Shown here: positions 14,193-21,519 of the stretch, one piece after another
Layout: every line of letters starts with the position of its first letter
Numbering within the stretch: the stretch's first letter is position 1
Origin: Akkermansiaceae bacterium
Lineage (GTDB): Bacteria; Verrucomicrobiota; Verrucomicrobiia; Verrucomicrobiales; Akkermansiaceae
Length of the DNA: 53,303 nt
Reading direction: 5' to 3'
Assembly (NCBI GenBank): GCA_029242935.1
Contig: JAQWSX010000116.1
Coordinates: forward strand, 1 to 53,303
Notes under the pieces: generated by a model
Database searches by the model: none
Told to the model about the DNA's origin: nothing
The model's input: only the letters and a program-made list of their open reading frames with translations
Program-made: the position numbers and the translations under genes

Positions 14193-14222
14193 TTGAATCT
14201 TATCAACATATCGCGATATGTA
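14193..14222 (+). promoter_or_regulatory. Candidate sigma-70 promoter of metH
   Basis: TTGAAT (14193-14198), an 18-bp spacer and TATGTA (14217-14222) give a plausible vegetative promoter with four matches in each box. The predicted leader to the ATG at 14277 is only about 50 bases, too short for a cobalamin or SAM riboswitch. A perfect palindrome lies inside the spacer and covers the -10 box. Confidence 0.4.
14206..14221. promoter_or_regulatory. 16-bp perfect palindrome, probable repressor operator of metH
   Basis: ACATATCGCGATATGT equals its own reverse complement over all 16 bases and lies 55 bases before the metH start, between and over the predicted -35 and -10 boxes. Perfect AT-flanked palindromes of this size are typical sites for ArsR-like dimeric winged-helix repressors. 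SAH-responsive ArsR-family regulators of the methionine cycle are known in Proteobacteria. No regulator gene lies nearby, so its identity is inference. Confidence 0.55.
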
Positions 14223-14276
14223 GATTTGAACTTGAAAATCATTTCATTCTTCCGAAAGTCCGCACAAGACGAGCCA

Positions 14277-15365
14277 ATGACAACTCACCTTAGCGAAGAA
14301 CTCAAATCAGCCCTCTGCGAGCGTATCCTAGTCCTCGATGGAGCCATGGGCACGACTATCCGTGGTTATGGACTCTGCGAATCAGATGCCCGTGGCGAAC
14401 GTTTTCAGGACAATCGCGAGGACCTCTTGAATAACGGCGACATCCTTTCCATCACCCAACCTGACGTGATTGGCGACATCCACAAACGTTTTTACGAAGC
14501 CGGATCTGACATCTGCGAAACAAATACCTTCTCTGGCACTGTTTTGGCTCAATCTGAATTTTTCGTCGAAGATCCCCGGAAAACCGGCGGCACCAAAGAT
14601 CCTGAATTCTTTGAGAAACAAGTTCTCAACAACAGCGAACTTCAGGACCTAGTCCACGAACTTAATATAAAATCGGTCCAGCTTGCCAAAGAGCAAGCCA
14701 ACCGAGTTTCCCAAAACGACGGACGTAAACGTTATGTCGCCGGAGCCATAGGCCCTTTGACTGTTTCCCTCACCAACGTCGTCGACCCGAATGACACCTC
14801 ATTCCGCCCCGTCACCTTCGATCAGGTCAAACAAACCTACCGCCACCAAATCGATGCTCTCTTGGAAGCAAACTGCGATATTCTCATGGTTGAAACCATC
14901 TTTGACTCCCTTAACGCCAAAGCAGCTCTGGTTGCGATCAAGGAATCGAGAACCGAAGCTCCCGTCATCATTTCGGCCGCCGTTGGTCGTGGTGGCGAAA
15001 CCATGATCTCTGCCCAAAAAGTCGAAGCGCTCTGGAACACCTTCGCTCATATCGATCCCCTCGCGATTGGCCTCAACTGCTCTCTTGGTCCAGATCTCAT
15101 GGAGCCCTTTCTCCGCGACCTCGGAAAAGCAGCCACCACTCACATCTCGTGCTACCCCAATGCCGGACTCCCAAACCCGCTTGCTCCGACAGGTTTCGAC
15201 CTCGAACCACAGGATATGCACGATTACATTGCCGCCTTTGCCGATGCCGGACTCCTCAACCTGGCTGGCGGATGTTGCGGAAACACTCCCGAACACATCG
15301 CCGCCATCGCCAAATCAGTACAAGGCAAATCCCCACGTCCCGTCCCCACACTTGCCACCGCGTAG
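14277..15365 (+). CDS. metH: Methionine synthase, homocysteine-binding module (split MetH, part 1)
   Basis: This 362-residue protein equals the N-terminal homocysteine methyltransferase barrel of cobalamin-dependent MetH. It opens with ERILVLDGAMGTTIRGYGL. Later come ETIFDSLNAKAAL, the first zinc cysteine in IGLNCSLGP, and the paired zinc cysteines in LAGGCCGNTPEHI. It holds homocysteine as a zinc thiolate for methylation by methylcobalamin. The ATG at 14277 is chosen because it begins the conserved part; a TTG at 14193 overlaps the promoter. It stops at 15365, and the remaining domains lie in the next gene 46 bp away. Confidence 0.95.
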   Translation: MTTHLSEELKSALCERILVLDGAMGTTIRGYGLCESDARGERFQDNREDLLNNGDILSITQPDVIGDIHKRFYEAGSDICETNTFSGTVLAQSEFFVEDPRKTGGTKDPEFFEKQVLNNSELQDLVHELNIKSVQLAKEQANRVSQNDGRKRYVAGAIGPLTVSLTNVVDPNDTSFRPVTFDQVKQTYRHQIDALLEANCDILMVETIFDSLNAKAALVAIKESRTEAPVIISAAVGRGGETMISAQKVEALWNTFAHIDPLAIGLNCSLGPDLMEPFLRDLGKAATTHISCYPNAGLPNPLAPTGFDLEPQDMHDYIAAFADAGLLNLAGGCCGNTPEHIAAIAKSVQGKSPRPVPTLATA

Positions 15366-15411: not shown

Positions 15412-18150
15412 ATGTCCCCTGTCCCACGTTTCCTTCGACTCTCCGGTACCGAAGCTTACAATCATACTCCTGACAAAAATTTCCTAATGATCGGAGAGCG
15501 GACCAACGTCGCCGGCTCTCCTCGCTTCCGAAAATTGATTAAGGAAAACAAGCTGGAAGACGCTCTCGAAGTCGCTCGCCAGCAGGTCGAAAATGGTGCA
15601 AACGTCATCGACATTTGCTTCGACGACGGCCTGATCGACGGGAAATTCATGATGGCCAAATTCCTCGACCTTATTCAGGCCGAACCCGACATTCAGGCCG
15701 TCCCTATCATGGTCGATTCCTCAAAATGGGAAATCATTGAAGAAGGCCTCAAACACCTTCAGGGCAAGGGCATCGTCAACTCCATCTCTCTCAAAGAAGG
15801 CGAAGAAGCTTTTATAACCAACGCGAGACACATCCTCAACTACGGAGCGGCCGTCGTTGTCATGGCCTTCGACGAACAAGGTCAGGCCGCCACCTACGAG
15901 GACAAATGTCGTATCTGCAAACGCGCCTACGACATCCTTGTTGATGAGGTCCGCTTTCCACCCCAAGACATCATCTTCGACCCCAACATTCTCACTGTTG
16001 CCACTGGCATCGAAGAGCACAACAACTACGCCCTCGATTTCATCAACGCCACTCGCTGGATAAAGAAGAACCTTCCCTTCGCAAAAGTCTCCGGAGGCGT
16101 CTCCAATATCTCTTTCTCATTCCGCGGTAACAACGCCGTTCGCGAAGCCATGCATTCGGCCTTTCTTTACCACGCCACTCAAGCCGGAATGGACATGGGT
16201 ATTGTCAACGCCGGCATGCTCGAGGTTTACGATGAGATTCCAGAGAACCTTCTCACCGCAGTCGAAGATGTCCTTCTCAACAAGGACGATGAAGCAACCG
16301 AACGCCTTCTCGACCTAGCTGAAGAATTTAAAGGCCAAGGATCCAAGAAGCTCGTTGAAGATCTCAGTTGGCGAGAACAACCCGTCGAAAAACGTCTCGA
16401 ACACTCCCTATTGAGGGGTATTGATAAATTTATTGACCAAGACACTGAAGAAGCCCTTTCAAAGTACGAGAAACCTCTGACCGTCATCGAGGGACCTCTT
16501 ATGGATGGTATGGGCATTGTGGGCGACCTCTTCGGAGCCGGGAAAATGTTCCTGCCGCAGGTCGTTAAATCCGCCCGAGTTATGAAGAAATCCGTAGCGT
16601 GGCTTGAGCCACTTATGGAAGAGGAACGCGAGGAGAAAATTATCGCGCAAGCGTCCCGCCTTTGTTCGGAGGACTCCACTCTCTCCATATCAGAAGCACG
16701 CGCTATCGCCACCAAGTCCTTTTCGAACGGTAAAGTCATCATGGCCACCGTTAAAGGGGATGTTCACGACATTGGCAAAAACATCGTCGGTGTAGTACTC
16801 TCCTGCAACGGCTTTGATGTTGTCGACATGGGTGTGATGGTCTCCTGCGATAAGATCCTCGATGCAGTCGAAGAGCATGACGCTGATATCATCGGTCTCT
16901 CCGGGCTCATTACCCCTTCGCTCGACGAAATGATTACCGTCGCCAAAGAGGCCGAAAAACGAGGCTTCGGAGAGAAAAACATCCCAATCCTGATCGGAGG
17001 AGCCACGACCAGCGCCGCCCACACCGCCATCAAAATTGCGGGACACTACACAGGCCCACTTGTTCACGTCCTCGACGCTTCCCGGTCTGTTCCCGTCACA
17101 ACCGCTCTTCTGTCCGAAGATCGACAAATTTTCATCACCACCAACGAAGAAAACCATCAAAAGGCTCGAGAAAAATTTAATGGAACAAAAAAGAAGGCCG
17201 CTCTCTCCATCGAGCAAGCCCGCGCCAATAAGGTCAGTATCGACTGGAAAAGCTACGCCCCACCCATTCCTGAATTTACCGGGACCCGCGCCATCAAGTC
17301 CCAGTCCCTGCGCGAACTCGCAACCTACATCGACTGGACCCCTTTCTTCCACACCTGGGAACTACGTGGTGTTTGGAACTCCGAAACCGAGACACTCAAA
17401 ACCCGGAATAAAGAAGGAGGAAAGGTCGCTAAAGAACTCTACTCTGAAGCAAAAGAACTTCTCGAAAAAATCATCACCGAAAAGCGCTTCACCGCCTCCG
17501 GAATTTATGGGTTTTTTCCCGCCAAAGCAGAAGGAGATGACATTCATCTTCCCGATCACAACGTCACCTTCCACACCCTTCGCCAACAAAATAAAAAGTT
17601 CGAAAAACCCAACTATGCCCTCAGCGACTACGTGGCTCCCAAGAGCGACCACCTCGGGGGCTTTGTCGTTGGCATTCACGGCGCGGATGAATGGGCGGCC
17701 GTACTTCGCGAACAGAACAACATCGACGAAGCTCTCATGGTGCAAGCGCTTGCTGACCGTTTCGCCGAAGCTTTTGCTGAACTCTTACATCACCGGGCCC
17801 GTATCGCTTGGGGAATCGAACGTCCGGGACAATTTAGCCAATCGGAACTCATCCACGAAAAATACCAGGGAATTCGCCCTGCTCCCGGCTACCCGAGCCA
17901 GCCCGACCACACCGAGAAGCGCATCCTTTTCAATCTTCTCCAAGCTAATGAGAAAGCCTCTGTCGAACTCACCGAGTCTTGTGCGATGCATCCTGGCTCG
18001 GCGGTTTGCGGGCTCTACTTCTCCCATCCCGACTCACACTACTTTATGATCGACAACCTTCAGAAGGATCAGATCAAAGACTATGCCGAGCGGAAAGAAC
18101 TGAGCATGGAAGAAGTTGAAAAGTGGCTAGGACCATGGCTAGGTTACTAG
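15412..18150 (+). CDS. metH: Methionine synthase, folate/cobalamin/activation modules (split MetH, part 2)
   Basis: The 912-residue protein carries the rest of MetH. The pterin-binding barrel begins near 20 ([20 protein letters not shown]). A helical cap follows at about 320-440. The Rossmann B12 domain has the base-off signature [14 protein letters not shown] with its Co-ligating His. The C-terminal SAM-binding reactivation domain (about 600-912) includes [12 protein letters not shown] and [19 protein letters not shown]. Methyl groups pass from methyl-tetrahydrofolate to cobalamin and on to homocysteine held by the preceding protein. Together the two make about 1275 residues, close to one-piece E. 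coli MetH (about 1227), so the split is at the Hcy/folate module boundary and nothing is lost. Confidence 0.96.
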
Positions 18151-19893: not shown

Positions 19894-20349
19894 ATGAAAA
19901 AATCAATTCTCGCTCTCTGCGCCTTTTCTTTTCTCGCTCCTGCAACGATCTCAGCTCACTGCCAGATCCCCTGTGGCATCTACAATGATGACAACGTCAT
20001 TGAGTCTATGCACACAGACTTCGAGACTATCGAAAAAGCCTCAAAACAGATCATCGAACTTTCCAAGAACCCTTCAAAAAATGCCCACCAACTGACCCGG
20101 TGGATCACGAATAAGGAGTCCCACGCACAAGCGATCCAAGAGAAAATCCTCAACTACTTTCTCGCCCAACGTCTCAAACTCGCCGAAGCAAAATCTAGCC
20201 AAGCGACCTACACGGCAAAACTCCAACTTTGCCACCAGATCATCGTGACCTCCATGAAGTGCAAACAGTCAACCGATGCTACAAACGTTGCCAAGCTTCA
20301 CGACCTGATGCACGATTTCGAAAAGCACTTCGGTACCCCAAAGAAATAG
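19894..20349 (+). CDS. sodN: Nickel superoxide dismutase with Sec signal peptide
   Basis: The 151-residue precursor has a Sec-type signal (MKKSILALCAFSFLAPATISA). Predicted cleavage after residue 21 exposes HCQIPCGIY. That is the nickel-hook consensus HCxxPCGxY, in which the new N-terminal His, Cys2 and Cys6 bind Ni. A downstream Glu (IES, about mature residue 16) and Arg (LTRW) match the residues that position His1. The rest is a four-helix bundle of about 130 residues, near the normal mature length. It dismutates superoxide to oxygen and peroxide. Known bacterial NiSODs often need the SodX protease to trim a propeptide; no sodX is nearby, and export would place this one in the periplasm. 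A peroxidase follows. Confidence 0.93.
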   Translation: MKKSILALCAFSFLAPATISAHCQIPCGIYNDDNVIESMHTDFETIEKASKQIIELSKNPSKNAHQLTRWITNKESHAQAIQEKILNYFLAQRLKLAEAKSSQATYTAKLQLCHQIIVTSMKCKQSTDATNVAKLHDLMHDFEKHFGTPKK

Positions 20350-20385: not shown

Positions 20386-21519
20386 ATGCTCCGTCTCCTC
20401 GCCTTAATTTCCTGCGGAGTCAAGATAGCCCAAGCCGCGCCCGATCTCCCTGAGATCGGGCGTTCTGTTTTCACCGACAAAAACCTTTCGAATCCTCCCG
20501 GTCAGTCATGCCTGACTTGCCACAATCCCAACCACGCATTTGCTGACCCCAGACGTGTCTCTCCCGGAGCCACACCAACCCTCTCAGGCAATCGAAACGC
20601 TCCATCTCTCATGTATGCAGCGCTTATTCCTCCCTTCGCATACGAGGATATCCTACTCCCGGATGGAACCGAAATATTTGCGTGGGAAGGCGGTCTCTTT
20701 CACGACGGACGAGCCAAGGACCTCTTCGAACAAGTAGACCAACCCTTTTTTGAGGCCCATGAAATGAACCTCAAAAATAAAGCCGATCTTGCCCAGAAAA
20801 TCCGCAAATCAACCTACAAGGGAAAATTCCCAAAGGGGGCCCTAAAGGATAACAACCAACTCACTTATCTTGTCTTTCGATCTCTTGTTGAGTTTTTAAA
20901 ATCCCCATTCTTCCGCCCCTTCGATTCTCCCTTCGACCGTTACCAAGCAGGAGAGAAGAGTGCCCTATCTCTATCTCAAAAACGAGGCCTCGATATTTAC
21001 AAAACCTCGGGCGGCTGTGCCGACTGCCATTTCCTCGAACCTCAAAACTGGAACAAACCACTCCTCTCCGACTTCGGATACGATAATCTCGGAGCGCCTG
21101 CCATCGGCAGAAAAGACCCCGGCCTCTTCGTGGTCACCGGCAACCCGGAAGATCTTGGGAAATTTCGAGCTCCTAGCCTCCGCAATATTGAACTCACCGC
21201 TCCTTATCTTCACAACGGCTCAATTAAAACTCTCCGCGAAGTTCTCGAATTCTACAACAAGCGCGACCTCGAACCCGAACGTTGGGGCGTCACCGACTAC
21301 CCGGAAACTGTCAACCACGACGACCTAGGAAATCTTGGCCTAACCGACGAAGACATCACCAACCTTCTCAATTTTCTTCACGCCTTTACCGATGACAGCC
21401 TCACGAAGAAAGAAACAACTTTTCCTATTGCCCCAAAAAAGACGCCTTCCACCGAAAGCATCAGACTCAATTTCCCCGACCACACCCATCGTCTCGATCC
21501 GAACTTTGAGACAAAGTGA
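20386..21519 (+). CDS. Di-haem cytochrome c peroxidase (MauG/CCP family)
   Basis: The 377-residue periplasmic protein has a short signal (MLRLLALISCGVKIAQA) and two haem-c motifs, CLTCH near residue 45 and CADCH near 210. Other CCP blocks are the region containing WEGGLFHDGRA, then EAHEMN and the C-terminal APSLRNIELTAPYLHNGS. The family reduces hydrogen peroxide to water with electrons from small cytochromes. The ATG at 20386 is preferred over a TTG three bases earlier. It lies 36 bp after sodN, so the product of the dismutase (peroxide) is the substrate here. A run of nine C (20373-20381) sits in the gap. The protein is short for some CCPs but complete. Confidence 0.93.
   Translation: MLRLLALISCGVKIAQAAPDLPEIGRSVFTDKNLSNPPGQSCLTCHNPNHAFADPRRVSPGATPTLSGNRNAPSLMYAALIPPFAYEDILLPDGTEIFAWEGGLFHDGRAKDLFEQVDQPFFEAHEMNLKNKADLAQKIRKSTYKGKFPKGALKDNNQLTYLVFRSLVEFLKSPFFRPFDSPFDRYQAGEKSALSLSQKRGLDIYKTSGGCADCHFLEPQNWNKPLLSDFGYDNLGAPAIGRKDPGLFVVTGNPEDLGKFRAPSLRNIELTAPYLHNGSIKTLREVLEFYNKRDLEPERWGVTDYPETVNHDDLGNLGLTDEDITNLLNFLHAFTDDSLTKKETTFPIAPKKTPSTESIRLNFPDHTHRLDPNFETK

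What the first reader, a model, noticed from the sequence alone, without database searches (positions are those of the whole stretch)
19894..20349. Nickel SOD matured by signal peptidase rather than SodX
The nickel hook HCxxPCGxY must begin with a free N-terminal His. Here a Sec signal ends exactly before that His, so leader peptidase would create the active terminus and the enzyme would be periplasmic. Most studied NiSODs are cytoplasmic and need SodX. No sodX-like gene is in the window.
Basis: partly seen in the sequence, partly recalled or inferred. Interest (0 to 1): 0.6.

Follow-up and report, generated by a model that had tools for sequence, protein, structure and literature searches.

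The report
Secreted nickel superoxide dismutase without SodX
The gene encodes a nickel superoxide dismutase with an export signal that ends exactly at its nickel-binding histidine, so ordinary secretion probably both exports it and exposes its active end; hundreds of bacteria from many phyla carry this version, yet it is almost undescribed.

Summary
Confirmed. Window 19894-20349 (+) encodes a 151-aa Sod_Ni protein (PF09055, 103 bits): MKKSILALCAFSFLAPATISA|HCQIPCGIY. The only start codon before the hook yields a typical Sec signal peptide ending exactly before nickel ligand His1. It is not a one-off: in 167 distinct NiSODs from Verrucomicrobiota and about 16 other phyla an export signal ends at the hook His; the -3/-1 signal-peptidase rule holds there in 165, against 0-38% when the boundary is slid. 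SodX (TIGR02754) is absent from this genome (E up to 10), from 117 family genomes at 1e-5 (62 carry NiSOD), and above cut-off from 387 genomes of the phylum. SodX-type controls (Nonomuraea, Novosphingobium) have short non-hydrophobic leaders and an adjacent sodX. In this family NiSOD coexists with Fe/Mn-SOD (leaderless where read) but never with Cu/Zn-SOD (0/62 v 7/55), as expected of a periplasmic SOD. AlphaFold2 gives the NiSOD fold. Best reading: Sec export, cleavage by signal peptidase I, nickel loading in the periplasm; these steps are inferred, not measured. A 2025 paper used a planctomycete NiSOD signal peptide as bait, so the class was glimpsed but not described.

The parts
19894..20349 (+). 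Nickel superoxide dismutase pre-protein, 151 aa
   Evidence: Open frame; Pfam Sod_Ni 102.6-102.9 bits; fold match to Streptomyces NiSOD
19894..19956 (+). Sec-type signal peptide, 21 residues MKKSILALCAFSFLAPATISA; predicted signal peptidase I cut between 19956 and 19957
   Evidence: Composition and -3/-1 rule; same boundary in 165 of 167 relatives
19957..19983 (+). Nickel hook HCQIPCGIY (ligands His1, Cys2, Cys6 of the mature protein)
   Evidence: His1, Cys2, Pro5, Cys6 invariant in the aligned relatives
19984..20346 (+). Four-helix-bundle body of the mature enzyme
   Evidence: AlphaFold2 pLDDT 93.5; PDB NiSOD best matches
20386..21519 (+). Neighbour 37 bp downstream: exported di-haem enzyme of the MauG/MbnH/cytochrome c peroxidase superfamily (two CxxCH, own signal peptide); possible user of the peroxide, link not shown
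   Evidence: CCP_MauG PF03150; best NCBIfam match MbnH family, below cut-off; pair kept in 8 close relatives only

Best explanation
It is a Sec-exported nickel superoxide dismutase. The pre-protein is threaded unfolded through Sec; signal peptidase I (LepB) cuts A21|H22 on the periplasmic side; this frees the His1 amine, and the hook His1-Cys2-Cys6 then takes up nickel in the periplasm, where the enzyme removes superoxide arising outside the cytoplasm. The general signal peptidase thus does the job that SodX, a dedicated peptidase of the same S26 type, does for cytoplasmic NiSODs. Shown by sequence: signal peptide, exact boundary, intact hook, fold, no SodX, and conservation of all of these. 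Inferred: the cut by LepB, residence in the periplasm, nickel loading there (the N-terminal amine ligand does not exist until after the cut), and SOD activity.
For: Leader and exact boundary in 165 of 167 distinct relatives. No SodX in own genome, in 117 family genomes at 1e-5, above cut-off in 48 genomes or records, nearly all of distant signal-peptide carriers, or in 387 genomes of the phylum, while SodX-type controls have adjacent sodX and non-hydrophobic leaders. LepB in 27 of 29 relatives, all 18 good assemblies. NiSOD coexists with Fe/Mn-SOD (leaderless in the eight read) in 55 of 62 genomes and never with Cu/Zn-SOD. Fold match.
Against: No experiment. LepB itself was not found in this incomplete assembly. 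An alternative A-P-A|T site exists in the leader of this protein (residues 15-17), which would leave TISA in front of His1; conservation favours A21. Two thiol ligands in an oxidising periplasm are chemically awkward and no chaperone or nickel-delivery gene was identified.
Confidence: 0.87

Rival explanations
1. Cytoplasmic NiSOD whose leader is removed inside the cell by an unrecognised SodX-like S26 protease; the hydrophobic leader is a pro-peptide, not an export signal.
For: SodX-type leaders also end in Ala before His, so the residues next to the cut do not by themselves tell the two enzymes apart; a true SodX can score below the curated cut-off (44 of 63 bits); some relatives hold extra small S26 proteases.
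Against: A K/R n-region plus strong hydrophobic core in nearly all 167 leaders, absent from SodX-type leaders (2.56 against 0.07 and 0.69); no TIGR02754 match at E 10 in this genome or at 1e-5 in the family; no S26 gene recurs beside these NiSODs; a cytoplasmic Fe/Mn-SOD is already present in most genomes.
Confidence: 0.06
2. An exported hook protein that is not a working NiSOD: a periplasmic nickel or copper binder that kept the NiSOD fold and hook.
For: The equivalog model for sodN scores only 38 of the 90 bits required; positions aligned with Streptomyces E17 and R47 are replaced; exported N-terminal-His metal binders of other families exist (PMC12537917); about 11% of the class has Phe at position 9.
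Against: Hook ligands and Pro5 are invariant, Gly7 99%, Tyr9 89%, Tyr62 equivalent 99%; same fold; the distribution against Cu/Zn-SOD fits a SOD role.
Confidence: 0.07

Closest known systems
Streptomyces NiSOD (SodN; PDB 1T6U, 1Q0D) matured by SodX
   Same: Hook HCxxPCGxY, four-helix bundle (Foldseek TM about 0.7, VIA Z 14.1), need for a free N-terminal His
   Different: Only 16-21% identical; the known one is cytoplasmic with a short pro-peptide cut by a dedicated adjacent SodX; aligned E17/R47 positions differ
Roseiconus lacunae NiSOD WP_230780104.1 (planctomycete; signal peptide MTRLLTATLALMFTASIASA|H used as bait in PMC12537917)
   Same: Sec signal peptide ending at the hook His; same Pfam family
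   Different: The paper used only the signal peptide to find other proteins; it did not characterise NiSOD, SodX loss, distribution or location in the text read
Periplasmic Cu/Zn-SOD (SodC)
   Same: Presumed role: exported SOD beside a cytoplasmic Fe/Mn-SOD
   Different: Unrelated fold and metal; never found in the same genome as NiSOD in this family sample
Lytic polysaccharide monooxygenases and other histidine-brace proteins
   Same: Signal peptidase cut creates the metal-binding N-terminal His (as described in PMC12537917)
   Different: Different fold, metal and reaction; here the hook also needs two cysteine thiols

Membership tests
Nickel superoxide dismutase (PF09055) | Match to the family profile over the curated cut-off | tested here: met
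   102.6-102.9 bits against 25
Nickel superoxide dismutase (PF09055) | Nickel hook HCxxPCGxY | tested here: met
   HCQIPCGIY at 19957-19983
Nickel superoxide dismutase (PF09055) | Four-helix-bundle fold of the solved enzymes | tested here: met
   16 best Foldseek matches are NiSOD chains, prob 1.00; VIA Z 14.1
Nickel superoxide dismutase (PF09055) | Nickel binding and superoxide dismutation | not testable with these tools
   Needs purified protein
SodX-dependent sodN (NCBIfam TIGR02753 / TIGR02754 pair) | Score over the sodN equivalog cut-off | tested here: not met
   38.4 of 90 bits
SodX-dependent sodN (NCBIfam TIGR02753 / TIGR02754 pair) | sodX in the genome | tested here: not met
   No TIGR02754 match up to E 10 in an 85.5% complete genome; none at 1e-5 in 117 family genomes
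Sec / signal peptidase I substrate | Positive n-region and hydrophobic core | tested here: met
   MKKSILALCAFSFL; best 9-residue hydropathy 2.56
Sec / signal peptidase I substrate | Small residues at -3 and -1 of the site, in the right place for function | tested here: met
   I-S-A|H; rule met in 165 of 167 relatives at this boundary
Sec / signal peptidase I substrate | Signal peptidase I present in the organism | tested here: inconclusive
   Not found over cut-off in this incomplete assembly; present in 27 of 29 relatives, all 18 good assemblies
Sec / signal peptidase I substrate | Periplasmic location of the mature protein with His22 as residue 1 | not testable with these tools
   Needs fractionation and N-terminal sequencing

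The most novel reading that the evidence does not exclude
The secreted NiSODs are a distinct major branch of the family that serves as the periplasmic SOD across many phyla, loads nickel outside the cytoplasm on thiols kept reduced there by an unknown route, and may be the older form, with SodX arising later from a signal peptidase when the enzyme moved into the cytoplasm.
Probability: 0.3. Interest if true: 0.75.

Novelty: new variant of a known kind. Interest (0 to 1): 0.52.

Why it matters
Published work places NiSOD in the cytoplasm and treats sodN without sodX as possibly unusable (PMC8346466, on cyanobacteria). If the signal-peptide class is active, NiSOD is a periplasmic enzyme in many phyla, SodX is not a general marker of a working NiSOD, and a clear question follows: how nickel reaches a thiol-ligated site in an oxidising compartment. 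It also suggests a simple way to make correctly processed recombinant NiSOD, by periplasmic export.

Tried and rejected
Lipoprotein signal: rejected, L-A-L-C9 is no lipobox (Leu at -1) and lies too near the start. Tat signal: no twin arginine. Downstream alternative start: none exists. Chance placement: rejected by the slide test. SodX elsewhere in the genome: none. In distant signal-peptide genomes 17 of 48 records (controls included) have TIGR02754 hits, all below cut-off; the best (44 bits) is the true SodX of the Novosphingobium control, next is 42.7 bits in a 557-aa frame of an acidobacterial genome, so the bit cut-off alone does not separate SodX from other S26 proteases outside this family. 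Viral or phage carriage: no relatives. PDB by sequence: no match for the protein or its profile. A conserved maturation neighbour: none found. The weak Peptidase_S26 hit on contig C81 is not LepB. Four leaders failed the strict rule: two lack K/R near the start, one (contig L075) has Leu and one (L228) Pro before His. Bias check: one of two patterns contained the Ala before His, but the profile searches had no such bias and give the same picture.

Full report
WHAT IS THERE. The window is contig C171 of a 3.16 Mb, 219-contig, 85.5% complete assembly; the nearest named relatives are Akkermansiaceae / Verrucomicrobiales metagenome genomes (up to 93% protein identity). ORF 19894-20349 (+) encodes MKKSILALCAFSFLAPATISA HCQIPCGIYNDDNVIES... 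(151 aa). It matches Pfam Sod_Ni at about 103 bits but the NCBI equivalog sodN only weakly (38 of 90 bits). No solved structure is found by sequence. An AlphaFold2 model of the mature part with 53 sequences is confident (pLDDT 93.5, pTM 0.86; the first ten residues, which hold the hook, about 59). Its 16 best Foldseek matches in the PDB are all Streptomyces NiSOD chains (TM 0.65-0.71 by query length, best E 3e-3). VIA-align gives Z 14.1 over 115 residues against 12.1 for the next fold, which is a modest gap, as usual for helical bundles.

THE SIGNAL PEPTIDE. ATG 19894 is the only start codon between the upstream in-frame stop and the hook. The 21-residue leader has two lysines, a hydrophobic core and I-S-A at -3 to -1. 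I collected NiSODs from a family sample (62 of 117 genomes), a phylum sample (62 of 387), 80 named loci of genome contigs (567 confirmed relatives existed, the best 80 were kept) and a Fusobacteriota plasmid. Among 167 distinct sequences every hook begins with His. The residue before it is Ala in 90% and Ala/Gly/Ser in 99%. The -3/-1 rule is met in 165 of 167 at that boundary, in 15-38% when slid upstream and in 0% when slid downstream. 163 pass a strict export-signal rule; the other four differ in small ways. The named carriers are filed under Verrucomicrobiota, Kiritimatiellota, Lentisphaerota, Planctomycetota, Latescibacterota, Thermodesulfobacteriota, Calditrichota, Zixiibacteriota, Gemmatimonadota, Hydrogenedentota, Sumerlaeota, Bacteroidota, Acidobacteriota, Nitrospirota, Fidelibacterota, Myxococcota and Fusobacteriota; most are metagenome assemblies, so single assignments may be wrong.

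NO SODX. TIGR02754 has no match in this genome even at E 10, none at 1e-5 in 117 genomes of the family, and none above cut-off in 387 genomes of the phylum. There 23 have weak S26 hits, and only one of these also carries NiSOD, on another contig. Positive controls: Novosphingobium NiSOD (leader MFFIRNMLDRIPGIEEAQA) has sodX directly downstream, and a Nonomuraea NiSOD (leader MLARLLRPKHVASA) has sodX divergently adjacent. Their leaders have no comparable hydrophobic core (0.69 and 0.07 against 2.56). No S26-like gene recurs beside signal-peptide NiSODs. Signal peptidase I is found in 27 of 29 relatives and in all 18 good assemblies. It is missing from this incomplete assembly, as is Fe/Mn-SOD, most simply because about 15% of the genome is not assembled.

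COMPARTMENT. In the 117 family genomes Fe/Mn-SOD is nearly universal (109), and in eight members of the genus it has no leader, so the cytoplasm is already served: 55 of the 62 NiSOD genomes also have it. Cu/Zn-SOD occurs in 7 genomes, none of them among the 62 with NiSOD (Fisher p 0.004 overall, 0.10 within genus g7, which holds five of the seven, so common descent is a confounder). This is what one expects if NiSOD fills the periplasmic place.

HOW IT MOST LIKELY WORKS. Sec export, cut by signal peptidase I at A21|H22, then nickel binding. Because the N-terminal amine that ligates nickel exists only after the cut, and the cut happens outside the inner membrane, nickel must be bound in the periplasm (inference from the known mechanism of signal peptidase I and the solved NiSOD site). 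Peroxide formed there could be used by the di-haem enzyme encoded 37 bp downstream (20386-21519). That protein belongs to the MauG / MbnH / cytochrome c peroxidase superfamily and scores best against the MbnH family, below its cut-off. The pair is kept in 8 close relatives only, so the coupling is a local hint and not part of the core claim.

RELATION TO KNOWN THINGS. On a tree of 107 sequences the 103 signal-peptide NiSODs and the 4 SodX-type NiSODs lie on opposite sides of one branch (SH-aLRT 95; quick, unrooted, few SodX-type rows). Tyr9 and the Tyr62 equivalent are mostly kept; positions aligned with Streptomyces E17 and R47 hold Met/Leu and an almost invariant His. That E17 and R47 form the hydrogen-bond network of His1 is from memory (R47 is named in that role in PMC5722923), and the alignment is weak there. 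[quoted passage not shown] A 2025 paper used the signal peptide of a planctomycete NiSOD as bait for other N-terminal-His proteins and remarks that the search retrieved many NiSODs (PMC12537917). Other searches found no account of this class. The 2008 NiSOD diversity paper by Dupont and colleagues is not held and may mention it.

VERDICT. The gene represents a broad, hardly described secreted class of NiSOD: a new variant of a known kind. Enzyme activity, the actual cut and the place of nickel loading remain to be shown.

Noticed in passing
window 14193-15365 and 15412-18150 (+): Methionine synthase MetH is split into two ORFs (homocysteine-binding part; pterin, cobalamin and activation part). 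The same split is present in four relatives of the genus (L230-L233), so it is a real two-gene form rather than a sequencing error.
   Followed up: partly
window 20386-21519 (+): Di-haem MauG/MbnH-like enzyme with its own signal peptide, 37 bp downstream of the NiSOD; kept next to NiSOD in 8 close relatives but not beyond. Whether it is a peroxidase or modifies a protein is open.
   Followed up: partly
mature NiSOD residues Cys92 and Cys102 (window about 20230-20262): Two extra cysteines; the second lies in a K-C-K-Q motif common in relatives, the first mainly in near relatives. In an oxidising periplasm they could form a disulfide or affect the hook thiols.
   Followed up: no
L050, L055, L087, L097 and other relatives: 18 of 167 secreted NiSODs have Phe in place of Tyr at hook position 9; a Y9F mutant of Streptomyces NiSOD has been crystallised (3G4X), so nature has made the same change.
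   Followed up: no
L007 and L014 (C-terminal ends of the NiSOD): His-rich tails (KPHTHADGTTHSH; GKSGHSH) on two relatives, possibly metal-gathering.
   Followed up: no
family genomes: NiSOD and Cu/Zn-SOD never co-occur in 117 genomes, while Fe/Mn-SOD is nearly universal; seen also within genus g7, though not significant there.
   Followed up: partly
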